NCBI GenBank assembly: GCA_905221615.1 | Contig: CAJNDT010000968.1 | Coordinates: forward strand, 1,076,232 to 1,140,231 | DNA: 64,000 bases | Source: Symbiodinium sp. CCMP2592 | Taxonomy: Eukaryota; Sar; Dinophyceae; Suessiales; Symbiodiniaceae | Direction of reading: 5' to 3' | Part shown: positions 9,831 through 60,543 of the stretch, piece by piece | How the letters are laid out: each line of letters starts with the position of its first letter | Position numbering within the stretch: the first letter of the stretch is position 1 | Notes under the pieces: generated by a model | What the model was told of the DNA's origin: nothing | Database searches by the model: none | Seen by the model: only the letters and a program-made list of their open reading frames with translations | Position numbers and translations under genes: made by a program

Positions 9831-11170
9831 GGCAAGGGTACCGGTGCGACCAGCGTCGCAAAGGTGCCGCAGGAGCCAGCATCGGTTTCCCTCGAAACCG
9901 CCCCTCGAACCTATGTATACGTCGGCAAGACGCCCGATGTGTATGAAGAGAATGCCATGCGTTTGAAAGGTTGCCCCGCTAGCGGCAAAGGCAGTGCTGC
10001 TACAAAAGGTAGCAAGGGCGGCGAAGCGACCCAGCCGTCGACGACAAAGGGTGGCAAGGCTACCGGTTCGAACGCAAAGGGTGGCAAGGCTTCGGGCGAT
10101 GGTGGCAAAGCTTCGAATGCAAAGGGGGGCAAGGCTACGGGCGATGGTGGCAAAGCTTCGAATGCTAAGGGTGGCAAGGCTACGTGCGATGGTGGCAAAG
10201 CTTCGGATGCTAAGGGTGGCAAGGCTTCGTGCGATGGTGGCAAAGCTTCGGATGCTAAGGGTGGCAAGGCTACGGGCGATGGTGGCAAAGCTTCGAATGC
10301 AAAGGGGGGCAAGGCTACGGGCGATGGTGGCAAAGCTTCGAATGCTAAGGGTGGCAAGGCTACGTGCGATGGTGGCAAAGCTTCGGATGCTAAGGGTGGC
10401 AAGGCTACGGGCGATGGTGGCAAAGCTTCGAATGCTAAGGGGGGCAAGGCTACGGGCGATGGTGGCAAAGCTTCGGATGCAAAGGGTGGCAAGGCTACGT
10501 GCGATGGTGGCAAAGCTTCGGATGCTAAGGGTGGCAAGGCTACGGGCGATGGTGGCAAAGCTTCGAATGCAAAGGGGGGCAAGGCTACGGGCGATGGTGG
10601 CAAAGCTTCGAATGCTAAGGGTGGCAAGGCTACGGGCGATGGTGGCAAAGCTTCGAGCGCAAAGGGTGGCAAGGCTACTGGCGATGGTGGCAAAGCTTCG
10701 AATGCAAAGGGTGGCAAGGCTACGGGCGATGGTGGCAAAGCTTCTAAGGGTGGCAAAGCAAAGGGTGGCAAAGCCAAAGGGCTGAACACAGGAAGCCCGG
10801 TGTCGAACGCCGAGGGTGATTCGAATGCTGCTGAGACCACTTTGGCTTTGGTTTGCCACACACCTCCGCCGAAGCAGGCTGCAACCGACGTGGATGAGTT
10901 GCACACTGGCACTCCACCGAGTCAATCGGTGAATCCTGCCACGAGAGCCAAGTCCAAGGGCAAGGGCCATGCAGCCAGCCCAAGCACCACGGTGGAGGCC
11001 AAGCTAGGCTCTGGAAAAGGCCAGGCGCATGCCGAGGAGATGCCGGCTGCAGGCCTGGGTGGCAAGGATGCCGCAAAGGGGGCCGGTGAAGGACGGGGCG
11101 CCAAAAGGGCGGCCGAGGATGCCGATGACCGACGAGTGCATCGCCGTGTGTCTTTCGGAGGAGGACGGAT
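9831..11170 (+). CDS. KGGKATGDGGKASNA 15-residue repeat protein
   Basis: The + frame is open from 9831 to a stop at 11,267. It has unique N-terminal sequence (PRTYVYVGKTPDVYEENAMR), 15 tandem 15-residue units rich in Lys, Gly and Ala, and a unique C-terminal part (LVCHTPPPKQAATDVDELHT, later KRAAEDADDRRVHRRVSFGG). Coding probably ends near 11,160, before a telomere-like CCCTAAACCC motif. The unit is 45 bp, so frames on both strands stay open, but only this frame continues through unique sequence at both ends. The high Lys content suggests a nucleic-acid-associated or nuclear protein; this is inference. The start lies upstream, since a stop at 9828 precedes a splice-like AAG|G. Confidence 0.6.
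10075..10760 (+). repeat. 45-bp coding minisatellite, 15 copies
   Basis: Units differ at three places: A(T/S)(G/C)D and AS(N/D/S)A. In the first seven and again in the middle, the order N,N,D recurs, suggesting a 135-bp higher-order unit. TGD units go mostly with SNA and TCD units with SDA. Confidence 0.9.
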
Positions 11171-24699: not shown

Positions 24700-24858
24700 A
24701 GGTCCACCGTCTGACCCACGTAAGAGCCCTGGTCGCCCAGGAAGGTCAGTCCAATGAATCTTCCGCCTCGGCTGCCCACATCAAAGCAACGGTGTCCTTG
24801 CTGCCGACGCAGAGATGCGTGCGGCTGTCTCCGGGATGCGTGTGAAGCGGGAAGGAAG
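24700..24858 (-). CDS. Probable exon next to the LTR element
   Basis: The - frame reads CFDVGSRGGRFIGLTFLGDQ, then GSYVGQTVDLRR. Upstream (higher coordinates) the exon runs to the edge of an LTR at 24,859, with CGGAGACAG as a possible acceptor about 30 bp before it. Whether the LTR element disrupts the exon or lies in the intron cannot be decided here. Function is unknown. Confidence 0.4.
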
Positions 24859-25136
24859 TGTGTTTGGTAGTGACTTATATGTCATACATGCATATGTAAG
24901 CATTGCTTCGCGGAGTCTGAACGGACTCATTCGCACTATCCAATGCCACGATCGACGTGGCTCAAGCAATGGTGCACAAATCGAGAAGTGTACCGGGTTC
25001 TGGCAGGGGCCTCGGCTTGGAAGCTGGGTTTGGGGTTGTGGTGGTGGTCCCCAGGGTACCCGGTACCCTAGTCGCCCCCATCTCCTGGTACCCTAATCCC
25101 GAACCTTACAGGCTCCTTCGGAGCTTGATTTGCTGA
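24859..25136 (+). repeat. LTR, first copy
   Basis: It starts TGTGTTTGGTAGTGACTT. The end is set provisionally before TGGTGATCGGAAGTAGCGG, a candidate tRNA primer-binding site; the exact boundary is uncertain because the common segment continues into gag. It differs from the second copy by scattered substitutions and a small indel near 24,890, so it is an older pair than the LTRs at 29 and 37 kb. Confidence 0.6.
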
Positions 25137-25157
25137 TGGTGATCGGAAGTAGCGGTG

Positions 25158-27595
25158 ATGCCTAGTGGTTATGATGATGTACCCTATCAGATAAGACAGG
25201 CGCTGCAGCAGCAGCAACAACAGCAGTCACCAGCATTCAGCATCGTTACCGATGGCCCGCAAACACAGGTTATGACACGCCCAAACGCTGAAGCGCATGC
25301 AGAACCAGCCATTGATCAAGGCTTGCATCTGCAGTTCGCAACGGGCAATGTCTCTTCCATCAGGGCTAAGGCTACAGCGGATGTTGCAAGTGCAAGCGCC
25401 GGAAGAGTTTCTGCATATGTTGAGATCAGACAGAACGAATGCCCTTTCTGCCTTATCGTCTTTAGAGGATGTGCAGAGGAGGCTCGATGATCTGAGCGGC
25501 GACATGCAGTTTCGGACAGAACGCTTGGCAGCATGGGTCTCTTCCATCATGGGGGAGGCAGATGTCACTCGACAGCATCTGGGAGCAGCAGGCCAATCCA
25601 TGCAAGACACTGAGACTTTGTGGAAGCGGGCCGATGGCCAGTTCAAGGAGCTCATGACTCGCGTGGGTCAGTTGGAAGCGGCAGTTAAGCATGAAAGCAG
25701 AGCGCAAGCCACGTTTGAAGCTGACATCAGCACGAAGGTGAACACGTTAGTTCAAATTGATAAAGACTTGCAATCAGAGTGGGCGCGGGTGGACGCATCC
25801 GAACAAGCTCACGCAGAGTGCGCAAAAGCAGTGAGTCAAGAAGTCGCGGGGGTCCATGTGCGGCTCGATGAAACCAGTCATGCAACCCTCACGACGGAGC
25901 AGAGCGAGCGCTTTGATGCCTTATGTCCGGCAGACGTCTTGACTAATAATATTGATGGTGCTCAAATACTTCAACAGATGCAAGATGTACGACGGGATCT
26001 TGACAAAACGATGGAGCATCTTGAATCTCATGTGCACGCTACTATTGACCGCGATGCCCGGCTCAACAGCGCTCTTGCTAGGCTGGAAATTGCCACCAAG
26101 TTTCAAAGGCGCTGTGGAGAGCTGGAGACAAACATGGCCGTGCTGATGAAGCACCTTGGCGATGACAAGGCTGCTCAACACTTTATGGCATCTCGAAACA
26201 CGGAGCAGGCCCAAAGTCCTTTGATTGAGAATGCAGGACCTGTTCACCACATCATCGGACGCAGCAGATGCTGCTGATGAGTGGTGGGACGCCCATGATG
26301 ATAAGCCGATATCGTCGCGGGCACAGCCTCCAGGTTTGAGCTTCGCACCGTCGCAACCGCCCCCACCAATACCCTCGAACTTACGACAGATCAAGGGATC
26401 ACCCAAAAGCACGCAAGCAGCATCTGATAAAGTTCCACATGCCGCTTTAAAGCTGCTGAAGGATTGTCCAAAGCTGGACATTCAGCAGGGCGAATGTTGG
26501 GAAATCGGGATGAAGGTCAACCAATGGAAGGCTGAGACGACGACCGTGTTAAGCACCATCCATCGAGACTTCGGAACCTAGTTTCGAGCAGGTGTTCGCA
26601 CAGGCAGCCGAGAGATACAAGCAGAGACAAGTGACAGCATGTGCGCCCCCGATACCAGATGTTCAAGGGAATGGGTGATTGTGAGGTTCGTCTGCCACTG
26701 AGCTTATTGAAGGTGTTGCCGGTCAAGGTAACACAACCCGTCCGGGAGCGACAGGATGGTCCTGTAGTGAGGTCGGTATTGCTCTTAGAGTCCCTGCATG
26801 AGACAGTGGCTCCAGGAGGAAGGGAAGAGAATACATCGTTGCAGAAGTTTCTGCGGTCTCTTCCGTCGGCGGCGCATGGACGTGGAATTCTCGCGACACT
26901 TAGCCGGTGGCAGTTGGCGACGGCGGGTGCGGCGTCATTGGCGTTGCCACCGCAAGCACCAAACGAGGTGCTGTCTGCAATCGAATCTCTTGCGAAGACT
27001 GTTGGACAGGGTAACCCTCAGTTCTCCAAGAAGCTGAACTTGCTGCGCTTGCAGCAGGATGTGGTTGTCACCACAAAATCTGGACTGGATAGGTTCATTC
27101 TGTGTGTGGAACAAGAAGCGCGTCTGCTATCAGCAGATGAGGACGTGCGCACCGCAGCCTGCGGGACATGGGAGCAAGCCACAGCATGATGATGAGTATG
27201 TGATTGCGAAGGCCAGTGGAAAGGGAAGCGAGAAGAGACCTTGTTGGTTTCATTCAACTCCGGAAGGGTGCTCGGGCGGGCGAGATTGTCCATTCTCACA
27301 TGATGGCCCGTCCGGGGCAGCAGGGTCTAAGGGCTCAGAGGGCGAAGGCAAGGGAAAGAAGGGCAAGGATCATGATCAGTCAGCCGATGCAGCAGCAAAA
27401 TCAAAAGCAGAAGCCAAAGCGAAAGCAAAGGCTGCGGCCAAGGAAGTCAAGGCCAAAGCCAAAACCGAAGCCAAGGCAGCTGCAGACGCCAAGGCTAAAG
27501 CAGCTCCAACTGCGTCGTCTGCGAAATCTGCAGCTGGTGGAGCTAGCTTCGCGGAAGATATTTGCACACTGCGCAATCACATATCGGAAGCTTGA
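25158..27595 (+). pseudogene. Broken gag of the decayed LTR element
   Basis: The ATG at 25,158 starts MPSGYDDVPYQIRQALQQQQ. The frame then breaks, and a long coiled-coil stretch follows in another frame (25,297-26,277; for example SALSSLEDVQRRLDDLSGDM). Further pieces are at 26,225-26,581, 26,641-27,189 and 27,150-27,595. The last carries a canonical C-X8-C-X5-C-X3-H finger (CWFHSTPEGCSGGRDCPFSH, 27,240-27,300) and then a Lys/Ala-rich tail. At least three frame changes or stops interrupt it, so it is not functional as read. Confidence 0.65.
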
Positions 27596-28236: not shown

Positions 28237-28402
28237 AGCTCTCGTTACAGAAGTCTGCTTGAACGACAGGTGGGTCATTGCGTCTCTGGAATGAAAGTAG
28301 GCAAGTTTGCGCCTGGAAGCTGGTTAGTACTGCGCTTGTTTATGCAATCGTCACTACACACTTTGGAGCACTTTTCCCTGAACAGCGAAATGTGAGGAGG
28401 AG

Positions 28403-28676
28403 TGTGTTTGGTAGTGACTTGTGATGCATGCCTATGTCAGCATTGCTTCGCGGAGTCGGAACGGACTCATTCGCACTATCCAATGCCACGATCGATGTGG
28501 CTCAAGCAATGGTGCACAAATCGAGAAGTGTACCGGGTTCTGGCAAGGGCCTCGGCTTGGAAGCTGGGTTTGCGGTTGTGGTGGTGGTCCCCAGGGTACC
28601 CGGTACCCTAGTCCCCCCCATCTCCTGGTACCCTAGTCCCGAACCTTACAGGCTCCTTCGGAGCTTGATTTGCTGA
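28403..28676 (+). repeat. LTR, second copy
   Basis: It starts TGTGTTTGGTAGTGACTTG directly behind a GAGGAGGAG purine tract. It is followed by the same leader and gag start as the first copy, up to 28,812, where similarity ends abruptly. Confidence 0.6.
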
Positions 28677-28882
28677 TGGTGATCGGAAGTAGCGGTGATG
28701 CCTAGTGGTTATGATGATGTACCCTATCAGATAAGACAGGCGCTGCAGCAGCAGCAACAACAGCAGTCACCGGCATTCAGCATCGTTACCGATGGCAGTC
28801 CGCGAACACAGGAAGCTCTGAGGGCTTCGCAGCCCCATCCCCACTCACTGTCTGCACTCCTGTCCAGCTGTGTAGTTCTCAC

Positions 28883-29020: not shown

Positions 29021-29193
29021 CTCCAGGGTCTTATGCAGCACGGGCAGTTGGGTCTCCACCCAACCACAGAACCTGGCGTCATTCGATGTCACCATACGGC
29101 CTGGCCTCCTTGCTCGCTGAGGCTGGAGCTTGACATGCGCTGCGGCGCTCTTGGCGAGCACTTCCAGGCAGAGGTAATGCCTGGCAGGATTTG
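29021..29193 (-). CDS. Host exon at the copia insertion point
   Basis: The - frame reads PARHYLCLEVLAKSAAAHVK, then a basic stretch, then GRMVTSNDARFCGWVETQLP and VLHKTLEA. The copia element begins at its upstream edge. Mentally removing the element and one ATTTG copy joins it to sequence beyond 37,968 that includes CACGCTGCAG, a possible acceptor. The insertion therefore lies inside or just outside this exon. The downstream donor is not canonical GT. Confidence 0.5.
29189..29193. other. Target-site duplication ATTTG, left copy
   Basis: It is identical to 37,964-37,968. The 5-bp length is usual for copia integrases. Confidence 0.9.
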
Positions 29194-29341
29194 TATGCAA
29201 CCCTGGTGCACAGGGCCGCAACAGGCTCTAACCTTTTGCCTGCCAGTAGCGATATCTGGGTCAAGGCCTAAAAGCAGCGGACAGAAAGAGAGCGTCTCCT
29301 CACACGGTCAAGACCCACTGGCACAAGCCTACGGTTCCACA
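29194..29341 (-). repeat. 3' LTR of the copia element
   Basis: 148 bp, base-for-base identical by eye to 37,816-37,963. On the element's strand it runs from TGTGGAACCGTAGG to GGGTTGCATA, so it ends TA rather than the usual CA. The first 13 bases contain the last codons and the TAG stop of gag-pol. Confidence 0.93.
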
Positions 29342-32300
29342 TTGATCTTCTCTTCTTTTGGGGTCTTGAACACCGTGATCAGAACCGCTGCTTCTCTGTC
29401 CAGAGATCGCAAAAAGCGACCATAGCGCACATCCCTTTCAAGAATGCGCCAGCTCCCACGACCCTGCTGATCATGAAAGAGAGCATAGGACGTTCGAAGA
29501 GGGTACATTTCAGCATCAAATCTCGGCTCGGGGCTCCTGTAGCTCTTGGCCCCGTGAGCCACTTGGATGATCAAGCCATCCCGGCGGTGCCAGCCACGTT
29601 TGGTGGCAAGCCCTTGTAGAAACCCGAGAACAGGGTCCGTTGGGCCTACTTCCTCTCCGCTCACTACCTCCGGTCCGGGGAGCACTTTGGGCTTCGCCTT
29701 GATCGTTTGCTTTACGAACTTCACGTTGTAGCGAAAGCTCCACTCACCAGCCGCCAGGGTATCCCGCATGTGAGATCCGCACATGTCCTTTGTGCCGGCG
29801 TCCACAAACATGTTGCTGGTCTCGGTCCAACGCAAGGAAACATTAGGTTTTCCGAGCATTCCACGAAGCCACGCAATGCTGAACGCCAGGGACTTCTGGC
29901 TTCCGTAAGAAGGCGTGTCGCTGTTCCCCTTGTCAAAGGTGTCCTTGGCGTCCGTGACGACGACAAGCCCCACGGTGTCCAGGATGCAGTCCACGCCTTT
30001 ATGGGCCAAGTCATAGCCCAAAGCTTCCGCCCAATGGCCACGACAGTACTGCCCCACGTCGAACCCTTCTTCAACTCCAAGCAACTCTGCTGCGAAAGTG
30101 CTCCGGCAAACGCGTTGCAAGCGGTGGCTGCGGTAGTCCAGCAAGGTGAACTTTCCGACGTCGCCAGAGAGCAGGGAGCGCTCTGCTAGCAACACACAGT
30201 AGCACGACTGAGAGTAAACCCTCTCAAGAGGCTTGTCACCCACAGCTCCACCACGAGTAACGTTGCCCAAGGAAGCGTCCGAAACCACAACAATGCCGGC
30301 GCCCAGCAGGTCCATGGGCCTGAACTTCAGCATGAAGTCCTTGGTAGCCTTGAACTCCTTCACCAGGACGTTGGCCTTCAGCATGGTGCCAACCGTGGGG
30401 GATTCAGACTGCAGCACACTCAAGTGGTAGCCCATGTCGGCTCGAACTTGCGCCACCAACCACTGCAGCGACCCAACCAAGGCTCGAAGCTGCTTCACTT
30501 CGCCAGGAGTGAGGCTTGCTTCCATGTCCCGACGGCGGCTCGCTGCCACCCGAATCGGAACCAGGTTGTCCACATAGGCCTCCATCGAAACACTGATCAC
30601 GCCAGTGTTCAAGTCCTGGTCCACCTTCTTGCCGCAGTAGACGAAGCTGTCCTTTTCCAAGGAGCCGAAACCCAGTTCATCGCCTAAGCGAGCGATCGAC
30701 TCCCAGGCCTCGGCATTGCCACTGATCAGCAGATCATCCACGTGACAGCACATCATGCCGATGAGCTCCGGTTGGGGTCCCTTAGACCACAAGAAGAAGG
30801 TTGCAGCATCCATGGTGGATTGCACCCACCGCTCTTTCTTGACACTCTTCTTCAGCCTCAAGTACCACTCACGAGGTGCATCACTGAGGCCAAAGACGCC
30901 CTTCACGATGCGACTCAGACGACGGCCCGTGGGTAATGTAGGGCTGCCGTCCTTCGACTCCATGTTTTGCAAGTAGAGCTCCCGGGTCCCATCTAGGTAC
31001 CGCTCGCCCTTCAAGAAGGCGCTTTTCACATCAGCTGTCCCGGTGCGCCACCCCTTCTTGAAGTTACTTGACCCCAGGGTGAAGAGGAGGTGCTGGGAGG
31101 TCCTCGAAGCTGTCGGAGCATCCTTCCGAAGGTCAAAGGCCGTAACATCTTTGTACCCCGGCACAACGAGGCGAGCACTGGCCTTTAAAGGGAGCTCGTT
31201 CGAGACTGTCCTCAAGCTTTCGTTCTTGTCCACGTACACGAACCTGGGCGTGAGGATTTTGTGCATCTCTCCCCTTTGCTTCAAAGTGGCGATGGTTTTG
31301 GCGGTCTCCTCTTCGGATAAGGTCTCTATGGCATCGTTGCGCACCCAAACATTCCAGGCCTCCTCCGACGCCACACGAAAAGCTGCTTTCTGCTCTTGCG
31401 TCATGGAGCGCCAATGGTACTCCTTGCGTGCGGCCTGGGCCGTCAGGGCCTCGCGTCCCGTAGGCCACTTCAAACCGGCCTTCACAAAGGCCTCGTACTG
31501 GGTACGACTTGGCAATGGCCACCTGCCATCCCACGTGCCATGGTCGGGCACGTCAAGGTCCTCGCCCGATGCCTTATCCACAGCAACTTGCGCCTGCAAC
31601 TTCACCAGAGGATGAACTTCGCCTTCTCGAGCTTGCGCCGCCTTGAGCACCATCTCCTTCTCTAGCACCAAAGCATCAAAAGGAACTTGCTCGCTCCCTT
31701 GGCTCCTAAGAGTTTCGGCTTCCACTTCGGCCGGCCGCTTGGTGCCCGTGGATTCCTCAGGAGTCTCTGCAAACGGCTCAATCGGAGAGTGTTCTTCAGC
31801 GGAGGCCCCAGCACGGCGAAACACATCGAACAATGGAGTCCCAGGCGCCCGAGAAGACACCCCAGAAGCCACAGGTCCCAGCAAGGTGGACGGTCGACGT
31901 GACTCCACTGCAGCATCCGAGACTGTTGCCCTAACGAGCTCACCAGGAGAGACAGGAGGTAGATCACGGCCACGTTGGTCACGAGCTCTTTGCATAGCCG
32001 CCTGCAGCTGACCACGGAAATCCTGAGAAGCACGATCATCTATAACAGGACCCCCAGGAGAAGCTGAAACTGCCGGTGGTTCTGAAAGGAGTCCAGCACC
32101 TTCCAAAGAGCCACTCTGGGGCTCACTCAGGTCCAGACCACCACTCGGTTCGCCGCCCCCAGGAGAAGCTGGAACTGCAGGTGGTTCTGAAAGTAGGAGT
32201 CCAGGGCCTTGTTCTTCTCCAGCAGGTTGCTCTTCGTCGCCACCACCATTTGGAACCACAAGCTCCCATTCCTGATCCCGTTCGGCGGCTGCCACCACTT

Positions 32301-35300
32301 CCTTGAGCACTGCTTCCCACTCGCCCGTCGCAATTTGTTCCATAGGGGAAGCCCTTCTCACATGCTCCAGTGCAACCTTGGTGAGAGAACCTCGGGCCGT
32401 CACATAGCAATTGGCATTCCCTTCGTAGGCAACCAAGAGCGCAGGTCCATGCCACCGCTTCAACAAGAGCTTTCGACGATCCTGGTTGCCACGGCGGTTG
32501 TACTTCTGCTCTCTCCAAAAGTAAACAAGGTCGCCTACTAAAGGAGCATCGGCCACCGTTGGGTTCCTCGATCTCGCCAGCTCGGCCCGCCGGAGCGCAC
32601 GGCTAAAGTGAAGCCGAAGCATAGCCATGCGAGCTGTTTCGCGAACCGCGACCAGACGGGCAAAAGTCGGCTGGCCCATCGCCTCGATCTCGCCCAAGCG
32701 GCCCTCAGCCAGAGCATCACCAGGAGGTAAAGGTTGACGGCCAACCGCCGCCTGCATCGGAGAGAAGCCACTGTCTCCCACATCCATGTTGTAGGCCTGC
32801 ACAGCTTCCCCCAGGCCCAAGGACATTTCCTCGAAGCCCATAAGCGACTGGGCCGCTGCACAGGCTCCAAGCAAGGCTTTCAACAGCCCTCCAACTCGCT
32901 CACACAGACCGTTTTGCCAGGGAGCTTGCACCGCAATGTGGTACACGAAAACGTTGTTCTGGCTGGCGAAGTCCTCCAGCTCGATGCTTATGAACTCCCG
33001 GCCCTGGTCACACACCAAGGTCTTAGGCATCCCAAAGATCGGTGCCCAGCGCTCACGCAGGAACTTGATCACCTCTGCGCTCGACTTGTTCTCCACCAGC
33101 ACGGCCATTTGGAACTTCGTGGCCCCGTCCACAGCATGCAAGATCGAGTACCGGGAGCCCGCCGCATCGAAGGCATCGAAAATGTCCAAGGCGATTTGTT
33201 CCCCCGGCTCCCGAGGGCCCGGAAGAGAAGCAGGTCGACGGGCTTTTGGTGGCCGCCGTTCTTCGCACACACTGCACCTCAGCTGCTTTGCCGCTATTAC
33301 CGCCTCAGGTGGCGCTCCTGCAATCACAAGCGCCCGAGCCAGTCTCAAAGGACTCCGGTGGCCCGTGTTCTCGTGCAGCCGACGCACAGCCTGCCTCACC
33401 GCAGTCGGAATGGGAATTTCGGTGCCCGGGTCCCGGCCTTGCTCTATGTCCTCATCATCGGACTCCGCCATGCCCCCCAAGCCTTCAAGAAGCTCGTCCT
33501 CCTCGGCGCCGGTCTCCGCCGCCAGGGTCTCCATCACATTCTCAGGGCCATGGTCCTCGTCGAACTGAAGCTGCATAGCATCCAGCAGTTCCTCCGCCAG
33601 GTTCCCGCCGGAGGTTCGCCGAAACGCCTCTGCCACAGCCCGGCTTGAGGTCACATAGCGCCGTCCATTCAAGGAGAAATCGAAAACACCCGGCTCATCC
33701 ATCAGCTCCCGACCCTCCGGCGTTCGGTGAGGGTCAGCTCCACGAAGAAGCTCCAAGAAGAAGTGCCGGCCAGACCGCCGGTGGGCGAGAGCCGATTGCA
33801 TCACAGAAGCCTCGGCATCCAAAATTTTCTTTTCAGCGGCGAGTCTGGCTTGGCCTCTCGAGTAATTCAAGAAAGGCGAACGGCCGGAAGCACGAAGCAT
33901 CAAGAAGTAAGGAAGCGTAGCATCGGGTTGCCGCCCAACAGCATGGCCTCGTGCCGTCGCCAACTTGCACACGTCAGCCACCAAGGGGTGACGGTCACCA
34001 GGTCGGGGCACATACTGCATGTGGAGGAAGGGCTCGTGGAGGGCCTCGTCATAGATCTGGTCCCGCATCACGGCAAAGGCCTCATAGATGTTTTGCGGGC
34101 TAGCCTTCACGAGCTTGCGGTCATACTTGCCCTTATTCCAGGCCTGGGAAATCAGAAGACGCTGGCCTGCCTTGAGCTGCTGTCGAAGAGGAGGAATCAC
34201 AGCTCGTTGTCGTGCACCTGTTGGAAGCCCATGTCGCTGTCCGGAGATAGGCCACCGGCCCCATCCGACGGCTGGCTGCCGCTGTTGGCCATCGCCATCA
34301 CATGCTGCATAGTCTGGTGGAGCAGCGACTCCAGGCGATGATCCCGAGCATCCAATCGTGCCTCCATCATGGAGCTTACTTGTTGCAGCAGGTCGGCCTG
34401 GTTCACGGCCGACGGTTCCATAGGCCCGGCTGTCCTCGGCCCCATCTCCAAGTGCAGATGCCCTTGAGGAGCGCCCGGAGGTTGAGGTAGTCCCGCCGAA
34501 GATGCCGCCGGCGTCGTCGTTGATGTAGTGGGAGGCGCCGCCTGAAGAGGTATGCCCTTGAGAGCATCGAGGGTCGGCCGCAATTTGTTCTTGAGCTTTT
34601 CCACTGTATCCTGCGCGCTCACCTCCACGTGCAACAAGGTGGCCAGCCTGATGAGGTCTTGCTTTAAGGTAGGGAGGCCTCCTTTGGGCCCCAACAAGGC
34701 CCGAGCAGCCGTCAACTGCTCCTCGCGCGTTTTCTTTTCGGCTGCCTCCTTCTTCAGTTTCTCCACCAACTGACCATGTATGGCGGCTCGAACTCCTTTG
34801 GTGTGGCGGGCTGCCAGCATTCCATCCAACATCGGATCCTCCAAGAACGCCAGCCTGATGCCCAGCCGGTCCCTCAAGTAGGCCGCGTCCTTGAGCAAGC
34901 CCAGGTCCTCGAACTTGTTCTGGAGGGCAGCCGCACGGAAGTGCCGCCGCGACAGGCCCCCACTGCGAACCATAGCTTCGGCTTGCTCCTTCCACTCCGA
35001 CGGGGACCGAGTATTGCTGTACGGTAGGGGCACGTAGCGCAGCAACGGCCGCTGCAGCAACCAGAGCAGAAGCCCAGCGAAGTGCCACACGTTTCTTTCG
35101 AGGAGGCGCAGGCACATCCTTCGAAACCTTGCGACCACTCGCACTGCCCTTCCGGAGTCCATTGGTACCGCGAGAAAACACAGGCACCTCAGAGTGGACC
35201 ATCGAATTTGAAGATTTTGAACCGCTGTGGCCATCATGCGTTTCCCTTGCCGGCTCAACGACCAACTGTTCATGCTCACGACCCTTCACAGGCACACCCT

Positions 35301-37305
35301 TGACTGCAGCAGCACGACGGAGGCTCCACTCAGCACCACTGATCTGCACTTCAAGGATCCCGTCCTGGCCTTCGCGGCGCCAAGGTCTGGTAGTCGAACC
35401 CCAGGCCCGCGGGAACACGTCAAGGAAGAAGTGACCTGCCGAGAGTTGCCGGAGAGGGATACGGGAACCATCCAGGTGATCTGCTCGCAAAGCCCGACGG
35501 GTAAAACTGATCACCCCACCGACGGCCTCGAGGAAGTCTCTGCCGAGAAGAAGCCCCAGCGATTCCACCTCGACAACGCTTGTCCAGACTAGCACACATG
35601 ACTGCCCCACAACCATAGGAAGGCGATGCCGGGAATAGCTTGCCTTCACCCCGTCGTTGCCGAACTTGAAGTTCTCTCTCTCGGGCTCGGTCTTCACAAG
35701 GGGCTGCAGCGCCTGCCACAAAGGAGAGTTAGAGAGTGCTTGCAGGTAGCCCTCCAGCCAGAACCGCCCGCACACCGTACGGTTGCAAGCGCTGTCGAGC
35801 GCACCCACAAGTCTTTTATCCACCGCCATTGCGCTCTGAACCTCGTGCGGCTGGCTGGCCTCAAGTGCTTCCGCAAACGACCCCACATTCGTCACAACAG
35901 CCGTCTCGTGGTACTGGTCTGGCTCGGCCGTCTCCTGGGTCGCCTCGGCGGAGAAAGTCTCAGCCAGCTGCACCCGGCGCTGCGGAGAGGATCCCATTGT
36001 CGCGCCCCCCGTTCTCGACGAAGGCTTGGGCCTTGCAAGGCCAGCCCCAGGCTTCGGGCACCCTTGGTCGCCAGCCCAATGTCCCGGCTGGCCGCAATCA
36101 TGACAAACTCCACGTTTCTTGAAGCCCGGCTTGCTCGGCGACTGCGGCGAAGAAGGCGCCGACGATGCCTTGCCAAAGCCCCGGTCCTTGCGTACCTCCT
36201 GCAGCTTATGGCGCGCCTCTCTCATCGTCAGCAAGGCTTCGGCCGCACTCTCAACCGTGCCTTCCACTTGCTCCAACATCTGTGGCTCCAGCCCTTCCGC
36301 CTCGGCCTGCTCGAGCTCCGTTGCCAAAGCCTCAGCCTCAGCCTCGAGCACTTCATCCAGGGAGAAGCCGTTGCCGTCCTCCTCCGGGACAAGCTCTTCT
36401 TCATCATGGTCCTCTTGCGTCTCCCCGTCATCCTCGCCAAGCTGCTCGGCCGCATAAGCCTGCCGAGTCCGCTGCCCAAAGAAAGACCGGCGAGGAACAA
36501 AGGAGCCAGGCTTGCCACCACCTTTCGCAGATGAAGCTCCCCCGCTGGGGGCCCGGTTCAGCACCGATCCCGTGCTAGCCCCGCGGTACACGGAAGACGC
36601 CGTAGACGAAGAGGAGGAGTAGCCACCAAAAGGGCGGCCCCGGCCTTTATCAGGAGGACCCAGCCGTCTCATCAATGGATCCGCGGCATGGAGGTCCTTG
36701 AACAAGCGCAGGGCCTCCGACTCGACGTCCTCAAAGCGTTCTTTGCCCTGCAAGGCTGTCTCCAACAACTGCTTCCTCAAAGGATCCAAGCCCAGCTTCT
36801 CACGAAGGAACCACCCAAGCTCTGAAGAAGGTAATTCGATGCCCTCGCTCTTCAGCTCAGCAGCCAAGAAGCGAAACCGGGAAAGGAAATCAGCCGGCCT
36901 CTCCCCTGGCTTCCGCATCAAGTCGTTGTAAAAGAGCTTGCGCAGCTCGCCCTTCTTATCCAAAGCGCTGGTTCCATTCATGCCCTCCAGCGCCTTGAGC
37001 AGCTTGTTCAAGCCGGCCAACAGGTCCTCCGGGGTCACGATGATCTCGACCCCTTCGGGGTCCTTTGCTCTCACCTCCTTCTGGTAGGTAAGGTCCTCCG
37101 GTGAGAACTCTTCCCCTCTCTGGCGTACGATCCCCGACTGCCGGAGCAGCCATCGCGCCGCCAGGTTGTACTTCTTCGTGCTTTCCAGGTCTAGAGAAGA
37201 GACCCACCATGCCATTTCCTTCCGGAAGGCCCTCCACGTCACAGGGCTGCCATCCCAGGTTGGTACCTTGTACCAAGCCGATGTCGTCTTGTCATCGTCC
37301 GCCAT
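29329..37305 (-). CDS. Copia gag-pol polyprotein
   Basis: 2658 codons from ATG at 37,305. Gag: residues 1-400. Zinc knuckle CHDCGQPGHWAGDQGC at 401-416 (C-X2-C-X4-H-X6-C). Protease: LDSACNRTVCG with Asp504, a D-S-A version of the usual D-[ST]-G, followed by LLLGRDFL. Integrase: His1311 / His1316 and CSVC finger, then Asp1374, Asp1433 and Glu1469 with exactly 35 residues between the last two (DD35E) and QNGLCER at the Glu. Reverse transcriptase: TADVKSAFLKGE and HVDDLL at 2188-2193 in place of YVDD. RNase H: SDASLG, TFAAELLGVEEG, Asp2452 in VVVTDAKD, and FVDAGTKDM. The stop falls in the 3' LTR. Residues about 760-1037 look like the wrong frame, Gly/Ser/Arg-rich without pattern. Confidence 0.93.
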   Translation of the reverse strand: MADDDKTTSAWYKVPTWDGSPVTWRAFRKEMAWWVSSLDLESTKKYNLAARWLLRQSGIVRQRGEEFSPEDLTYQKEVRAKDPEGVEIIVTPEDLLAGLNKLLKALEGMNGTSALDKKGELRKLFYNDLMRKPGERPADFLSRFRFLAAELKSEGIELPSSELGWFLREKLGLDPLRKQLLETALQGKERFEDVESEALRLFKDLHAADPLMRRLGPPDKGRGRPFGGYSSSSSTASSVYRGASTGSVLNRAPSGGASSAKGGGKPGSFVPRRSFFGQRTRQAYAAEQLGEDDGETQEDHDEEELVPEEDGNGFSLDEVLEAEAEALATELEQAEAEGLEPQMLEQVEGTVESAAEALLTMREARHKLQEVRKDRGFGKASSAPSSPQSPSKPGFKKRGVCHDCGQPGHWAGDQGCPKPGAGLARPKPSSRTGGATMGSSPQRRVQLAETFSAEATQETAEPDQYHETAVVTNVGSFAEALEASQPHEVQSAMAVDKRLVGALDSACNRTVCGRFWLEGYLQALSNSPLWQALQPLVKTEPERENFKFGNDGVKASYSRHRLPMVVGQSCVLVWTSVVEVESLGLLLGRDFLEAVGGVISFTRRALRADHLDGSRIPLRQLSAGHFFLDVFPRAWGSTTRPWRREGQDGILEVQISGAEWSLRRAAAVKGVPVKGREHEQLVVEPARETHDGHSGSKSSNSMVHSEVPVFSRGTNGLRKGSASGRKVSKDVPAPPRKKRVALRWASALVAAAAVAALRAPTVQQYSVPVGVEGASRSYGSQWGPVAAALPCGCPPEQVRGPGLAQGRGLLEGPAGHQAGVLGGSDVGWNAGSPPHQRSSSRHTWSVGGETEEGGSRKENARGAVDGCSGLVGAQRRPPYLKARPHQAGHLVARGGERAGYSGKAQEQIAADPRCSQGHTSSGGASHYINDDAGGIFGGTTSTSGRSSRASALGDGAEDSRAYGTVGREPGRPAATSKLHDGGTIGCSGSSPGVAAPPDYAACDGDGQQRQPAVGWGRWPISGQRHGLPTGARQRAVIPPLRQQLKAGQRLLISQAWNKGKYDRKLVKASPQNIYEAFAVMRDQIYDEALHEPFLHMQYVPRPGDRHPLVADVCKLATARGHAVGRQPDATLPYFLMLRASGRSPFLNYSRGQARLAAEKKILDAEASVMQSALAHRRSGRHFFLELLRGADPHRTPEGRELMDEPGVFDFSLNGRRYVTSSRAVAEAFRRTSGGNLAEELLDAMQLQFDEDHGPENVMETLAAETGAEEDELLEGLGGMAESDDEDIEQGRDPGTEIPIPTAVRQAVRRLHENTGHRSPLRLARALVIAGAPPEAVIAAKQLRCSVCEERRPPKARRPASLPGPREPGEQIALDIFDAFDAAGSRYSILHAVDGATKFQMAVLVENKSSAEVIKFLRERWAPIFGMPKTLVCDQGREFISIELEDFASQNNVFVYHIAVQAPWQNGLCERVGGLLKALLGACAAAQSLMGFEEMSLGLGEAVQAYNMDVGDSGFSPMQAAVGRQPLPPGDALAEGRLGEIEAMGQPTFARLVAVRETARMAMLRLHFSRALRRAELARSRNPTVADAPLVGDLVYFWREQKYNRRGNQDRRKLLLKRWHGPALLVAYEGNANCYVTARGSLTKVALEHVRRASPMEQIATGEWEAVLKEVVAAAERDQEWELVVPNGGGDEEQPAGEEQGPGLLLSEPPAVPASPGGGEPSGGLDLSEPQSGSLEGAGLLSEPPAVSASPGGPVIDDRASQDFRGQLQAAMQRARDQRGRDLPPVSPGELVRATVSDAAVESRRPSTLLGPVASGVSSRAPGTPLFDVFRRAGASAEEHSPIEPFAETPEESTGTKRPAEVEAETLRSQGSEQVPFDALVLEKEMVLKAAQAREGEVHPLVKLQAQVAVDKASGEDLDVPDHGTWDGRWPLPSRTQYEAFVKAGLKWPTGREALTAQAARKEYHWRSMTQEQKAAFRVASEEAWNVWVRNDAIETLSEEETAKTIATLKQRGEMHKILTPRFVYVDKNESLRTVSNELPLKASARLVVPGYKDVTAFDLRKDAPTASRTSQHLLFTLGSSNFKKGWRTGTADVKSAFLKGERYLDGTRELYLQNMESKDGSPTLPTGRRLSRIVKGVFGLSDAPREWYLRLKKSVKKERWVQSTMDAATFFLWSKGPQPELIGMMCCHVDDLLISGNAEAWESIARLGDELGFGSLEKDSFVYCGKKVDQDLNTGVISVSMEAYVDNLVPIRVAASRRRDMEASLTPGEVKQLRALVGSLQWLVAQVRADMGYHLSVLQSESPTVGTMLKANVLVKEFKATKDFMLKFRPMDLLGAGIVVVSDASLGNVTRGGAVGDKPLERVYSQSCYCVLLAERSLLSGDVGKFTLLDYRSHRLQRVCRSTFAAELLGVEEGFDVGQYCRGHWAEALGYDLAHKGVDCILDTVGLVVVTDAKDTFDKGNSDTPSYGSQKSLAFSIAWLRGMLGKPNVSLRWTETSNMFVDAGTKDMCGSHMRDTLAAGEWSFRYNVKFVKQTIKAKPKVLPGPEVVSGEEVGPTDPVLGFLQGLATKRGWHRRDGLIIQVAHGAKSYRSPEPRFDAEMYPLRTSYALFHDQQGRGSWRILERDVRYGRFLRSLDREAAVLITVFKTPKEEKINVEP
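34197..35040 (-). other. Alternative-frame coding block inside gag-pol
   Basis: On the same strand, one base downstream of the gag-pol frame, a frame is open from 35,279 to a stop at 34,197. From about 35,040 it reads as ordinary protein: SEWKEQAEAMVRSGGLSRRH, KFEDLGLLKDAAYLRDRLGI, KLKKEAAEKKTREEQLTAAR, LIRLATLLHVEVSAQDTVEK. The gag-pol frame over the same bases is erratic. In a 19-codon sample (34,681-34,740) third positions are about 74% G/C in this frame against 47% in gag-pol; the integrase sample at 33,001-33,060 gives 75%. The real product probably shifts frame into and out of this block, or two products overlap. Confidence 0.65.
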
Positions 37306-37815: not shown

Positions 37816-37963
37816 TATGCAACCCTGGTGCACAGGGCCGCAACAGGCTCTAACCTTTTGCCTGCCAGTAGCGATATCTGGGTCAAGGCCTAAAAGCAGC
37901 GGACAGAAAGAGAGCGTCTCCTCACACGGTCAAGACCCACTGGCACAAGCCTACGGTTCCACA
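37816..37963 (-). repeat. 5' LTR of the copia element
   Basis: Identical to 29,194-29,341. It should contain the promoter and polyadenylation signals; no TATA box is seen, as is usual in dinoflagellates. Confidence 0.93.
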
Positions 37964-37968
37964 ATTTG
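37964..37968. other. Target-site duplication ATTTG, right copy
   Basis: Directly follows the 5' LTR; matches 29,189-29,193. Confidence 0.9.
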
Positions 37969-40020: not shown

Positions 40021-40595
40021 AGCACTTTGCAGCAGGCCTCTTTTGACACCGTGTCGTCTTTGTTGACGTCGATGGCCTTGAGAAGGCTCGTCGGGCATCC
40101 GAAGCGCGGGCAACAGGGTGAGAACCACAACCTGGCCTCGAAAGCCGCAGCAAGCGTTTGCTTGACCTCGCTTAATTCTGCCGATGCGGCTTCACGGAAG
40201 GCACCACCACACAATTCACATTGAATGTTGCTAAGCCTGACACGTCCTTCAACTCCTGCGCACAAGCTCGATTGCGCGTTTCGGCTCTTGTTAGACTCAG
40301 CACGATTGACTCTATAAACTATAGTTCTACACATTTTTTCTTGGGTCTCAATATGTTTCACAAAAGCAACAACATGTATTGAGCAATCTCGTGTCTTTTC
40401 GAAAAAAACCAGACCAAGCTCATGTTCGCCGCCTTCCGCAACGCTTTCACCTCCTGCGGGGCCAACACCACAGCTATGACTCACCCCAAGACACAACTTC
40501 GGTACAATCCTAAACGAATTCCGACAAAAGTCCTTCAACAGCTTGAACATCAGTTGCTTCTGCATCGAAGAGATCCTTGACCTCAAGACGCACAA
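39999..40595 (-). CDS. Probable exon with degenerate EF-hand-like loop (copy 1)
   Basis: The - frame is open for 198 codons: MQKQLMFKLLKDFCRNSFRI, GPAGGESVAEGGEHELGLVF, and near the end LLKAIDVNKDDTVSKEACCK. The last resembles an EF-hand loop (D-x-N-x-D), but Gly at loop position 6 is Asp and the final acidic residue is off by one, so calcium binding is doubtful. In the second copy (59,172-59,846) a 3-bp difference keeps the frame, supporting coding. Many differences between copies change amino acids. Function is unknown. Confidence 0.45.
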   Translation of the reverse strand: MCVLRSRISSMQKQLMFKLLKDFCRNSFRIVPKLCLGVSHSCGVGPAGGESVAEGGEHELGLVFFEKTRDCSIHVVAFVKHIETQEKMCRTIVYRVNRAESNKSRNAQSSLCAGVEGRVRLSNIQCELCGGAFREAASAELSEVKQTLAAAFEARLWFSPCCPRFGCPTSLLKAIDVNKDDTVSKEACCKVLQPRSFL

Positions 40596-41274
40596 GAAGA
40601 ATGTACTGCACAGCCGACCTTGATATCAACACGAGAAGGGCTTCTCTTCGCACTCACACCCTGAGCCTCATATAGCATATTCCGGACAGTTTTGACATGT
40701 ACATGCTCATCACATTGTTGGTGAAGTTAAACCATGATATGCAGTAAATAGGGGTCTGGGGTTGCTGTACAAAGTTGTTACCCGTCTTTCCTGGTTACCT
40801 TTACGAATTTCCACGAAGTCAAACTGTGTCACAGACTGTTACTTTTTGGTACCGTCGACACTTTTGCAACTTACGGCAGATCCGGTCTCGCAAAAAAGCT
40901 AAACTGGGCTCAAGAGATGTCGTGACTCACAGCCCGATCAACCACAGCAGCGGTTTACCAGCAGTCGAACATGTAGAAACACTCACGGTTTGCATGGTCC
41001 ACATTGTTTGTAGCCACGGGACATAGCTTGTGCCTTCACCATTGTGGACTCATTCTACTTGCCTTGGTCACAACTCCGCAGTCTTGACGATGATCGAAAT
41101 TTCCATTGCCAACAGTCCATACGATCTGCTGTGCGTCTCGCACACAGCAAAAATTTCTCTGGAAAGTCCCCAAACAGTCTCGCTGTAGGGATTCTCTCTT
41201 CAAAGCACTGTCCGCGCTAAGGTAAAATGGCGTGTCCGCGCCCCGCTCCTTGTGTGGGTCGATGATACTGTGTT

Positions 41275-42115
41275 GATGCTCACCTCACCGAGCGTGTTGA
41301 TAAGTTGTTGCTGCCCTTTACGAACTTGCAGTTGTCAACCTGTATCCAAAGCAGTCCCTGCAGGCAAACTCGGTCCGAATGTGCTCTCGCCAGAGACACG
41401 CGACGAATTGTCTGTGCAAGGGGATGGCTCGAATCCTCAAGATCAGTAGACCAGAAGCACTTTAGCTTGTATGGCAATAGTTGATATGCCGAAGCATATT
41501 CTTGAGCCAAAGTTGCGTTGTGTGCAGAGAAATTATGGCAGGCACTGTCGCATGGTCCGGCTAGCGGGCCCAAGCGCGGGCAACATAAAAGCAGTGAGAC
41601 AAGATCTGCAAGACGGTGCCTTGCTCTATGTACATGGTGGCACATGACATCAGATTCATAGCTCAGATTGCGACACCTGCGAATTGGACTAAGCATCGAG
41701 GTCCGTTCGCACCCCCCATGAGTTGCGTCTCTGGCACTACACTCACTTTGGAAGAGAGTCGCGATTAGACAAAAAGAAAATATCCGCCGCAACTTTGAGG
41801 ATTGTTTAGGATAAGAGCCATGAGTTCTCAATTTAAAGGTTGTGACACTTCTCTACGTCAGTGACGATCCCCTGAAATGACTTCGCGGAATCAGAGAGAC
41901 ACCGAAGAAATAGGCCACGATTGGATTCCACCTGCACGTAGTAGCCAGTGCCACGAACTTGCCAGCAGTGAAAGACGATATGACCGATTGTCTTCCTCCC
42001 AGCGCCGGAGACGTTGACGTTCACGCTCACGTTCCTTAGGAGTCTTGGACTTGCCTGTGCCTCTGCCCTTGTCGACATGGGTGTTGGCATTCCAAGGACG
42101 CCGATAATACGGTAT
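41275..42115 (-). CDS. Repeated-exon gene, downstream part (copy 1)
   Basis: On the - strand an exon ends LINTLGE before GTGAGCATC (41,289-41,281), and a paralogous exon ends YVNKLGE before the same GTGAGCAT donor (42,128-42,120). The stretch at 41,455-41,830 is a diverged copy of 42,300-42,665, shifted by about 831 bp. The gene thus contains tandemly duplicated exon-plus-intron units. In this copy an exon segment of about 252 bp present at 61,370-61,620 is missing, so the gene here is probably damaged. Confidence 0.45.
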
Positions 42116-42789
42116 AAATGCTCACCTCACCGAGCTTGTTCACATAGTTGACAGTGGTGGCTTTCTACGATGCAGTAGCCAGTCGTACTGATACCAACGC
42201 AATCGCTGGCAAACTCGGCTCACCCTTTTTCGCGGGAGAGATACTCGCAGCGAGTTGTCTGTGCAGACAGGAATTGTTCAATCCTCAAGGCTCGTTAGAC
42301 TCGACAGTAGATGAGTAGATTCACTCATATTCTTGAGCCTAAGTTGCGTTGCACGCGGAGCGTATGGTAAAGTGACTTGTCGCCGGGTCCACACAGTGGT
42401 ACCGGGCTACATGGTACGAGGCCCACACAGTGGCTCCTCGACCCATGGACATGGCGTACCATGACATGTGGCTCATAGCTGTCATACCTAAAGAAGCGAC
42501 ACCTACGAATTGGACTAGGCATCGAGGTCCGTTCGCACCCCCCATGAGTTGTGCCTCCGGCACTGCTCACACGAAGAGAGTCGCGATGGAAACAGAAAAG
42601 GCTCCGCAGCAACTTTGGACATTGCTGAGGATAAGAGCTTTGACTCCCAATTAATAAGGTTGTGACATATCACTACGTCGGTAACGATCCCGGGAAACAT
42701 CACTCGCAGAATCAGAGAGTCATCGAAGAATATCAGTACGGATGCCGCCGCACATGAACGAGCGTCACACAGATGACGATGTAGAGACT

Positions 42790-43702
42790 CACCCTTGGTG
42801 ATCTCTTGCCCATCGTCCCGCTTGCCGACGGGCCTGCTCCCTTTCAGCGGGACGTCGGTTCTTGCCCTTGCCCTTGTCAGCAGCAGTGTTGGCATTGTAC
42901 CGTTGACGGTTCGCAGAAAATGCCTGTGCCCCAGATTCTCGTCCGACTTGCGCACGTTGTTCTGCCGTCACGGTTGTATCCATGATGGACGCTTGCCCAC
43001 GGGACAGATACTCATGCGGTGCAATGTGCTCCAAAGCTCTTCGTCTTCGAATAAGGCACGAGGATTGTTTTCGGCTTCCGCACGGTTCTTGATGAACTTG
43101 TCCAGGTATTTCCTTGGCACAGGGGTGTCACTGTCGATGAGCATGCCGACGGTTGTGACGCTGACGTCTCCAAGACTCACATTGGCCATCACCCCAACAG
43201 AGTCAATGAACAGGAATCCGACCGGACCAGAAGGAGCGGGACGAATGAGCGAAAAGAGCTGGTACCACGTGAGCTTGGGAATGATGTCGCTGAGAACGCC
43301 CACACAGCTGCCGTTCTCGTAGTTCTCTTTTGACTTCAGGGACGTCTGGTACATCTGCAGCAGCAGGCTGCTGTCTTTGGTTGTGAGATACAGGCGGAAG
43401 CTTCGATCGACAAAAACTAAAACGCTGAGAAAATTCAATCGCGATTGAACTTTTTCAATCGGCGGTCCTGTGGGATGCTCCGGAACAGGATCCTGGGAGT
43501 AGCCGAGGCAGGCCGCCTCATTAGACGCCACCGTGTTCCCCGCCGCCCGGCTCTCGCCGCCGTGCTCCTCCCGTTGGCGAAGACGCCGGCACGGAGACGG
43601 TTTCTGGAACCGGTTGTCGCCGCCACGACTGTGGACCCGAGGTCGCAGCCCGTGTGGAGCCTCTGGCCGCTTGCGGCATTTCTTCAGTTTTGTGCGCAGC
43701 AC
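42790..43702 (-). CDS. Repeated-exon gene, 5' part (copy 1), with a frame conflict
   Basis: The - frame from 43,702 to 42,968 includes VFVDRSFRLYLTTKDSSLLL, GSCVGVLSDIIPKLTWYQLF, IRPAPSGPVGFLFIDSVGVM and VPRKYLDKFIKNRAEAENNP, then ends. A second frame (43,034-42,789) reads ALEHIAPHEYLSRGQASIMD, then TVTAEQRAQVGRESG, and stops beside a GTGAGTC donor. The paralogous exon at 61,160-61,620 joins the equivalents of both parts in one frame, so a shift near 43,045 must be bridged by a short intron, or the gene carries an old frameshift. No family is recognised. Confidence 0.5.
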
Positions 43703-44090
43703 CTAGCTGCTTGCCGAAAGGGTGGCAGGGTGGCGTATCCGCTCTATAAATCCCGGACGCTCGTGGCTAGGGAGGCACGGCTATGCTCCCGAAGCGCGAG
43801 GAGTAGCGCCGTTGCTTCGGCTGCTCGTCTCACCAGCCCGTGGCCGCTGTGCGGCGCGGACTGTGGAAGGCTCAGAGCCTCGTGCCAGGAGTGCCGAGAA
43901 AAGTAAGGGGTTGCGCGTGTGTTCGGTTTAGGAAGGGTTGTCGGGTAGGTTTTTGGCAAAGCCTCCGGCCGCCCGCTGCCCTAACGACACACCCCGTGCC
44001 CTCGGCTGAGGGCGAATGTGACTGTACATAGTCTACGGGCTGTGCTGTGAGACTTTGTGCTTTTATGCATGTGTACTGTGAATTCGTGTT

Positions 44091-44111
44091 CCATAACATT
44101 TTTGGCTCAAG
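44091..44111 (+). other. Spliced-leader-like sequence (possible relict SL), copy 1
   Basis: CCATAACATTTTTGGCTCAAG matches the 21-base core of the dinoflagellate spliced leader (CCGTAGCCATTTTGGCTCAAG) at 17 of 21 positions, including the last 12 in a row. Relict leaders mark reinserted cDNAs in dinoflagellates. No intact downstream gene is visible on the + strand, so this is tentative. Confidence 0.4.
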
Positions 44112-44475
44112 CGAGCACGGCAGTAAATCGTAGGTTGCTCCGTGTAGCCTGCGATATATTGGCGGTGCGCAGCACGCTCCTGTGGTAGACGTGCGACCTG
44201 ACACGGTCGCGGGACTTCTGCAGCAGAGCACGTAAACGGGCGGCGCACGATTGCCTGGTGGTAACTCTGCCCCGCTGTGCTCCTTCACAGTAAGCTCAGA
44301 GTTCGTTGCATCAATCCTTGCCAAGCCAAAGAGTATGAGTGTGTTTTTGTGTGTGTATGTGTGTGTGCGTTTGTGCGTGCATGTAAAATTACTTGCCTGC
44401 TTGTGTCTTTAATTCGCGAATTTTCTTCAAACATGCAACTATTGTTTATGTAGTTGATAGTTCTTTACATATTGG

Positions 44476-59846: not shown

Positions 59847-60543
59847 GACGCACAGGAAGAATGTACTGCACAGCCGACGTTGATATCAACACAAAAACAA
59901 GCCAACGGGCTTTTCTTCGCACTCACACCCTGAGCCTCATATAGCATATTCCGGACAGTTTTGACATGTACATGCTCATCACATTGTTGGTGAAGTTAAA
60001 CCATGATATGCAGTAAATAGGGGTCTGGGGTTGCTGTACAAAGTTGTTACCCGTCTTTCCTGGTTACCTTTACGAATTTCCACGAAGTCAAACTGTGTCA
60101 CAGACTGTTACTTTTTGGTACCGTCGACACTTTTGCAACTTACGGCAGATCCGGTCTCACAAAAAAGCTAAACCGGGCTCATGAGATGTCGTGGCTCACA
60201 GCCCGATCAACCACAGCAGCGGCTTACCAGCAGTCGAACATGTAGAAACACTCACGGTTTGCATGGTCCACATTGTTTGTAGCCACGGGACATAACTTGT
60301 GCTTTCATCATTGTGGACTCATTCTACTTGCCTTGGTCACAACTCCGAAGGCTTCACGATGATCGAAATTTCCATTGCCAACAGTCCATACGATCTGCTG
60401 TGCGTCTCGCACACAGCAAAAATTTCTCTGGAAAGTCCCCAAACAGTTTCGCTGTAGGGATTCTCTCTTCAAAGCACTGTCCGCGCTAAGGTAAAATGGC
60501 GTGTCCGCGCCCCGCTCCTTGTGTGGGTCGATGATACTGTGTT

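What the first reader, a model, noticed from the sequence alone, without database searches (positions are those of the whole stretch)
34197..35040. A roughly 280-codon block of the copia polyprotein appears to be coded in the +1 frame while the main frame stays open
Seen: two frames on the same strand are open over about 0.85 kb. The +1 frame reads as normal protein and has the high third-position G/C of the neighbouring integrase (about 74% in a 19-codon sample against 47% for the main frame). Its stop at 34,197 falls just where the main frame becomes protein-like again. Inference: paired compensating indels, two ribosomal frameshifts, or overprinting. Either the 2658-codon frame is an accident over this block, or the element uses an undescribed dual-frame arrangement.
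Basis: partly seen in the sequence, partly recalled or inferred. Interest (0 to 1): 0.75.

Follow-up and report, generated by a model that had tools for sequence, protein, structure and literature searches.

The report
Hidden gene overlapping a retrotransposon polyprotein
Inside the long polyprotein gene of a mobile element, probably from a coral-symbiont alga, a second, unrelated and conserved protein of about 320 residues is written in a shifted reading frame of the same DNA, while the first frame stays open there apparently only as a shapeless linker.

Summary
A dinoflagellate copia-type element (identical 148-bp LTRs, 5-bp target duplication) carries one 2,658-aa Gag-Pro-IN-RT frame. Nested in the +1 frame, between protease and integrase, lies a complete ORF, ATG 35,162 to stop 34,197, 321 aa ("X"). 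X is a conserved protein: 45 database relatives (best 81% identity), helical AlphaFold model (pLDDT 81), codon usage like the element's, no known family found. The main frame also reads through in relatives: some database main-frame proteins and X proteins fit one shared DNA register for up to 341 of 341 residues (controls at most 14). Of 43 main-frame proteins matching both flanks (window included), 36 hide X in +1; the other seven are NCBI gene models that switch frame and read X. X is the more conserved frame in 28 of 28 element comparisons. Main-frame residues there are no more conserved than X forces in diverged pairs, and are predicted disordered, yet the window copy lacks stops where 7-13 are expected. 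Best reading: overprinting, an accessory gene overlapped by a read-through linker. Compensating indels and a double frameshift are not supported. How X is expressed is unknown. Relatives' nucleotides could not be fetched, so dN/dS was not run.

The parts
34197..35162 (-). Nested ORF X, 321 aa, in the +1 frame of the polyprotein; ATG at 35162, stop ending at 34197
   Evidence: 45 relatives; closest relative P0003 starts and ends at the corresponding residues
34557..35129 (-). Conserved helical core of X (about residues 12-202)
   Evidence: alignment A2; AlphaFold2 model with pLDDT about 82-97 per ten-residue block here
34284..34400 (-). C-terminal long helix of X (residues 255-293), coiled-coil-like by eye
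   Evidence: AlphaFold2 model
35163..35285 (-). Upstream stretch open in +1, ahead of the X ATG; a +1 shift, if used, would have to lie between here and the conserved core
29329..37305 (-). Main polyprotein frame, 2,658 codons from the ATG at 37305 (Gag and protease parts named from recall of motifs; integrase and RT by Pfam)
34197..35162 (-). Main-frame read-through linker over X: low-complexity, predicted disordered, about residues 725-1046 of the open frame
32923..33213 (-). Integrase core (Pfam rve) in the main frame
   Evidence: E 6.9e-11
30562..31269 (-). Reverse transcriptase (Pfam RVT_2) in the main frame
   Evidence: E 6.8e-12
37816..37963 (-). 5' LTR, 148 bp, identical to the 3' LTR
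29194..29341 (-). 3' LTR, 148 bp; the polyprotein stop lies inside it
29189..29193 (.). Target-site duplication ATTTG, left copy
37964..37968 (.). Target-site duplication ATTTG, right copy

Best explanation
A recently inserted copia-type LTR element, probably of a symbiodiniacean dinoflagellate, carries a nested accessory gene, X, in the +1 frame between protease and integrase. Shown by computation: X is a discrete, conserved protein of about 320 aa with a helical predicted fold; in many diverged relatives the same nucleotides also keep the Gag-Pol frame open; inside the block X carries the sequence constraint, while the main frame seems constrained mainly to contain no stop, so that it acts as a flexible linker joining Gag-Pro to IN-RT in one polyprotein. 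Inferred: X is translated as a separate protein from its own ATG, most likely from a separate mRNA (internal promoter, cis-splicing or spliced-leader trans-splicing; about 45%), less likely by internal or re-initiation (about 20%) or a +1 ribosomal frameshift giving Gag-Pro-X (about 20%), with the rest open. Inferred, weakly: X is an accessory factor of the element's own cycle (RNA handling, particle or localisation), not an enzyme. Codon usage of the window copy suggests that X is the older frame in this block and that the main frame was opened across it later. The confidence given is for the conserved dual coding, not for the expression route.
For: X has 45 relatives, best E 1e-158, with shared conserved motifs. 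Main-frame relatives read straight through the block. Joint-coding test: database main-frame and X proteins fit one +1 register for 341/341 (P0089 x P0012), 325/325 (P0122 x P0008), 242, 218, 212, 196, 161, 156 and 154 residues; the +2 register and reversed X give at most 13 and 14 over 460 comparisons each. Gapped version: 74 of 119 main-frame proteins (window included) exceed every control; of 43 that match both flanks, 36 hide X in +1 and 7 are NCBI gene models that read X wholly or partly directly. X identity exceeds main identity in 28 of 28 element pairs. In the window copy 7.3 or 13.0 main-frame stops are expected given X and none is present. X matches the element's codon usage (RSCU r 0.73; null 5-95% 0.34-0.78), the main frame in the block does not (0.24). 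AlphaFold2 mean pLDDT is 81.1 for X and 46.5 for the main-frame block with short flanks. 29 ATGs lie between the polyprotein ATG and the X ATG, so scanning from the genomic RNA cap is unlikely. X start codons are followed by GNN codons more often than internal Met (17/29 vs 156/436, p 0.017; some of the 29 are near-duplicates).
Against: No transcript, ribosome or peptide evidence for either frame was available. Nucleotide sequences of relatives could not be fetched (15 identical genome requests did not complete), so there is no dN/dS. Relatives with an open main frame were found by a main-frame query, which selects for openness, so the stop expectations for relatives cannot count as independent proof. 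Of 73 relatives carrying X in +1, 23 main frames end inside or at the end of the X region, and three of the 73 besides P0048 switch into the X frame part-way (P0074, P0085, P0098), whether from decay, contig ends or another layout. 25 of the 119 show no X; most of them end before or early in the block. Main-frame residues in diverged pairs show no conservation of their own. Database starts were called by unknown programs. X has no relatives detected outside this set, so its function is a guess.
Confidence: 0.86

Rival explanations
1. Single programmed +1 frameshift: ribosomes leave the Gag-Pro frame in the 35,285-35,129 stretch and make a Gag-Pro-X fusion that stops at 34,197, while unshifted ribosomes make Gag-Pol.
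For: The +1 frame is open for 41 codons upstream of the X ATG, and a few relatives have long open extensions upstream of the core (up to 132 residues before the anchor Trp).
Against: Of the few shift motifs I scanned (typed from recall, including the Ty1-type CTTAGGC), two occur in the overlap, TTTCGA at 35,126 and GGGAAAC at 35,246, both out of main-frame codon phase. A review passage says that only 2 of 51 surveyed animal LTR elements had pol in +1, against 28 in -1. Sister relatives keep similar N-termini from a Met (P0007/P0008, P0017/P0023, P0026/P0027), and GNN after Met is enriched.
Confidence: 0.2
2. Spliced reading: introns join Gag-Pro to X and X to integrase, as NCBI gene models such as P0048 show.
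For: 24 of the 118 listed main-frame relatives read part of X directly. Cer1 CERV is a precedent for a spliced, frame-switching product.
Against: In P0048, mapped on the near-identical window copy, the implied introns around X are only about 46 and 65 nt and the model also leaves out part of X's most conserved segment; P0025 switches elsewhere. This looks like a gene caller following coding potential. I mapped only P0048. Splicing alone would not explain why the unbroken main frame is kept open.
Confidence: 0.06
3. Two compensating indels (or assembly errors) put one copy's normal polyprotein segment out of frame.
For: The main frame in the block looks non-coding by GC3 and codon usage.
Against: The same register occurs in diverged elements. 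X ends in a stop at the same place in the closest relative and does not rejoin the main frame. The two LTRs of this copy are identical, so little time for indels.
Confidence: 0.01
4. X is the only real gene here; Gag-Pro and IN-RT are separate products and the open main frame is a by-product of X composition.
For: Main-frame residues are no more conserved than X forces (mean z 0.9 over 28 pairs); 23 of 73 relatives have main frames ending in the X region.
Against: Given X, 7-13 stops are expected in the window copy and none is present; frames of about 2,700-2,800 aa exist in nine relatives (P0056, P0057, P0061-P0064, P0066, P0068, P0069).
Confidence: 0.07

Closest known systems
Cer1 CERV (C. 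elegans Ty3/Gypsy-type element; PMC10309623, abstract and passages seen)
   Same: An accessory protein of an LTR retrotransposon, without obvious relatives outside its host group, with an exon read in a different frame from gag and the polyprotein.
   Different: [quoted passage not shown] X is one uninterrupted ORF fully nested between protease and integrase of a copia-type element, and no splicing is shown.
Ty1/copia elements (Pseudoviridae)
   Same: LTRs, integrase before RVT_2 reverse transcriptase, single polyprotein.
   Different: The standard plan as I recall it has no nested +1 gene in pol; [quoted passage not shown]
Nested overlapping genes of RNA-virus polyproteins (for example potyvirus PIPO, cardiovirus L*; recalled)
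   Same: A separate accessory protein in a shifted frame inside a long polyprotein ORF.
   Different: There the polyprotein is the older, structured frame and the overlapping protein the newer one (recalled). Here codon usage and predicted order point the other way.
DNMT-carrying Symbiodinium retrotransposons (PMC5890265, passages seen)
   Same: Symbiodinium retroelements with an added gene.
   Different: Those are LINE and DIRS elements with a cytosine methyltransferase; the passages say Copia elements there lack it and mention no overlapping ORF in Copia elements.

Membership tests
Ty1/copia LTR retrotransposon | Flanking LTRs and target-site duplication | tested here: met
   148/148 identical LTRs; ATTTG on both sides
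Ty1/copia LTR retrotransposon | Integrase N-terminal to a copia-type reverse transcriptase in one frame | tested here: met
   rve at residues 1374-1470, RVT_2 at 2022-2257
Ty1/copia LTR retrotransposon | Gag zinc knuckle | tested here: inconclusive
   zf-CCHC 14.6 bits, below the 20.8 cut-off
Ty1/copia LTR retrotransposon | RNase H domain and primer binding site | not tested
   no specific search run; one search printed the sequence next to the 5' LTR but no tRNA match was made
Overlapping (overprinted) gene pair | Both frames open in one register across relatives | tested here: met
Overlapping (overprinted) gene pair | The two frames are constrained differently in the shared block | tested here: met
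   X more alike than the main frame in 28 of 28 element pairs
Overlapping (overprinted) gene pair | Selection on the second (main) frame | tested here: inconclusive
   For openness, window copy 0 stops against 7.3-13.0 expected; relatives were found by a main-frame query, so their openness is by selection of the set; for residues, no excess over the X-imposed level in diverged pairs
Overlapping (overprinted) gene pair | Both products made in the cell | not testable with these tools
   no RNA or peptide data
CERV-like accessory protein | Spliced mRNA and a role in export of genomic RNA | not testable with these tools
   no transcripts; no sequence family found for X

The most novel reading that the evidence does not exclude
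A whole family of dinoflagellate copia elements obligatorily carries X, and the newer frame is the polyprotein itself: a disordered linker of about 320 residues that evolved across a pre-existing structured gene to fuse Gag-Pro with IN-RT, selected for being stop-free and not for its residues, while X is expressed from its own (perhaps spliced-leader trans-spliced) mRNA.
Probability: 0.35. Interest if true: 0.82.

Novelty: new variant of a known kind. Interest (0 to 1): 0.72.

Why it matters
Gene overlaps of hundreds of codons with both frames kept are familiar in viruses but, as far as I recall, rarely shown in elements resident in eukaryotic nuclear genomes. Here one protein family without a known relative is hidden in many database copia polyproteins, including those of coral symbionts, and some gene models seem to respond by inventing introns. 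It gives a measurable case of a polyprotein segment that appears to be kept only to stay open, and a testable question on how dinoflagellates express an internal gene. A review reports heat-activated Ty1-copia elements in S. microadriaticum (PMC11453091, passages), so expression could be looked for there.

Full report
What is there. On the minus strand, two identical 148-bp direct repeats (29,194-29,341 and 37,816-37,963) flanked by ATTTG bound a copia-type element. Its main frame runs unbroken for 2,667 codons, 2,658 from the ATG at 37,305, with integrase and RVT_2 in copia order. The 18 hits that carry an organism name are all Symbiodinium or Durusdinium, and one gene model of Symbiodinium sp. 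CCMP2592 is 99% identical over its first 757 residues, so the window is probably from that genus.

The +1 frame. The longest +1 stretch of the element (362 codons; the next is 154) holds an ATG-to-stop ORF, X, of 321 aa at 35,162-34,197. A protein search found 45 relatives. The closest, P0003 (81%), starts with nearly the same motif as the window's ATG and ends with the same last residues. In an alignment of the window and 39 relatives the consensus core reads LLLWLLQRPxLR, RNRxGxxLAFLEDPLLxGMLAA and GPKGGLPTLKxDL. AlphaFold2 gives an all-helical model with mean pLDDT 81.1. No Pfam family, PDB sequence or fold match of weight was found; this does not show that the fold is new.

The main frame over X. 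Two further searches with main-frame sequence gave 22 long and 96 mid-length proteins. Many align to the window polyprotein through the block. In the 19 that I tabulated, identity in three sub-segments of residues 700-1040 is 15-67%; it is lower than in the protease side (45-93%), while the first stretch after the block (27-76%) is often intermediate and in the most distant relatives no better than the block. Nine are polyproteins of about 2,700-2,800 aa. So an open main frame is not a quirk of this copy.

Joint coding. Without nucleotides I asked whether a main-frame protein and an X protein from the database could be written in one DNA stretch with X in the +1 register. The median longest run is 10 residues. 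P0089 with P0012 fits for 341 of 341, P0122 with P0008 for 325 of 325, and seven more pairs for 154-242; the window pair gives 362 by construction. Controls on ten of these main-frame proteins, in the +2 register and with reversed X proteins, reach 13 and 14 over 460 comparisons each. One search hit its time limit after P0142; P0143 on and P0001 were run (order checked). A gapped version over all 119 main-frame proteins (window included), with seven X proteins as probes and three for the controls, put 74 above the highest control score of 244. Of the other 45, 20 read X directly because the listed protein switches frame (many are annotated gene models, some are ENA predictions of unknown making), and 25 show no X, most of them ending before or early in the block. 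Of the 43 that match both the protease side and the integrase side, window included, 36 hide X in +1 only; the other seven (P0048, P0052, P0053, P0054, P0067, P0079, P0159) are NCBI gene models that read X wholly or partly directly. Against a simple story: of the 73 relatives above threshold, 50 main frames run past X and 23 end inside or at the end of it, and P0074, P0085 and P0098 switch into the X frame part-way.

Which frame is constrained. In all 28 comparisons among eight elements the X frame is more alike than the main frame of the same block (for example 91% against 64%, 88% against 71%, 42% against 28%; the window's main segment there was cut one residue late, which hardly matters and was corrected). 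Simulating synonymous codings of X with codons of the nested ORF shows that main-frame identity in diverged pairs is about what X alone forces (mean z 0.9 over 28 pairs, 17 positive; 1.6 and 22 positive with the other codon pool; the two close pairs, z 8-10, are high as recent common descent predicts). What is not forced is openness: 7.3 or 13.0 stops are expected in the window block and none is seen. The other seven elements give 2.4-15.1 expected stops by the two pools (weakest P of an open frame 0.069), but none can be seen there because they entered as open main-frame proteins. X uses the element's codons (r 0.73), the main frame in the block does not (0.24, under the null's 5th percentile of 0.34). 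The main-frame block with short flanks is predicted disordered (mean pLDDT 46.5, from a loose 19-row alignment) and rich in G, R, S, A, P, Q and T. These facts fit a linker selected to stay stop-free over an older structured gene. The order of events rests on the codon usage of one copy and is an inference.

Expression. The 510 nt between the 5' LTR and the polyprotein start hold no ATG, but 29 ATGs lie between that start and X's ATG, so ordinary scanning from the genomic RNA is unlikely. Start codons of 29 X members with an N-terminus long enough are followed by GNN in 17, against 156 of 436 internal Met (p 0.017; near-duplicates not removed). Sister pairs keep similar N-termini. I therefore favour independent initiation, probably on a separate mRNA; a single +1 shift giving Gag-Pro-X is not excluded. 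The introns around X in the one annotated model I mapped are about 46 and 65 nt and probably annotation artefacts.

Comparison. The nearest described case I found is CERV of Cer1, a spliced accessory protein with an exon in a frame other than gag. A fully nested, uninterrupted +1 gene inside a copia polyprotein was not met in the listings of seven literature searches of an incomplete library. I class it as a new variant of a known kind.

Limits. No nucleotide copies of relatives, no dN/dS, no RNA or peptide data; all relatives are database proteins, mostly of unnamed origin, clustered at 90% identity, so counts are of clusters, not of genomic copies. The protein searches scored only the candidates sharing most words.

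Noticed in passing
40021-44475 and 59278-64000: Duplicated stretches about 19.3-19.5 kb apart, 97.8% and 99.2% identical, running off the window's right end.
   Followed up: no
44091 and 63612, + strand: Two copies of a 21-nt stretch with 4 mismatches to the dinoflagellate spliced leader (recalled sequence), both with the exact core TTTTGGCTCAAG; they lie in the duplicated stretches; possible relics.
   Followed up: no
24857-25269 and 28401-28812: A 95% identical direct repeat of about 410 bp, 3.5 kb apart, perhaps LTRs of a small element lying next to this one.
   Followed up: no
31850-32380, - strand: In the linker between integrase and RT the main frame again has low GC3 (down to 0.28) and +1 high GC3 (up to 0.88), but +1 has stops there; includes a 41-bp repeat.
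   Followed up: no
10067-10744: Array of about 15 copies of a 45-bp unit inside open frames on both strands.
   Followed up: no
about 35035-35091, - strand: The main frame over the start of X has a recurring basic-hydrophobic stretch that AlphaFold2 models as the only helix inside the linker; probably forced by the Leu-rich X codons.
   Followed up: partly
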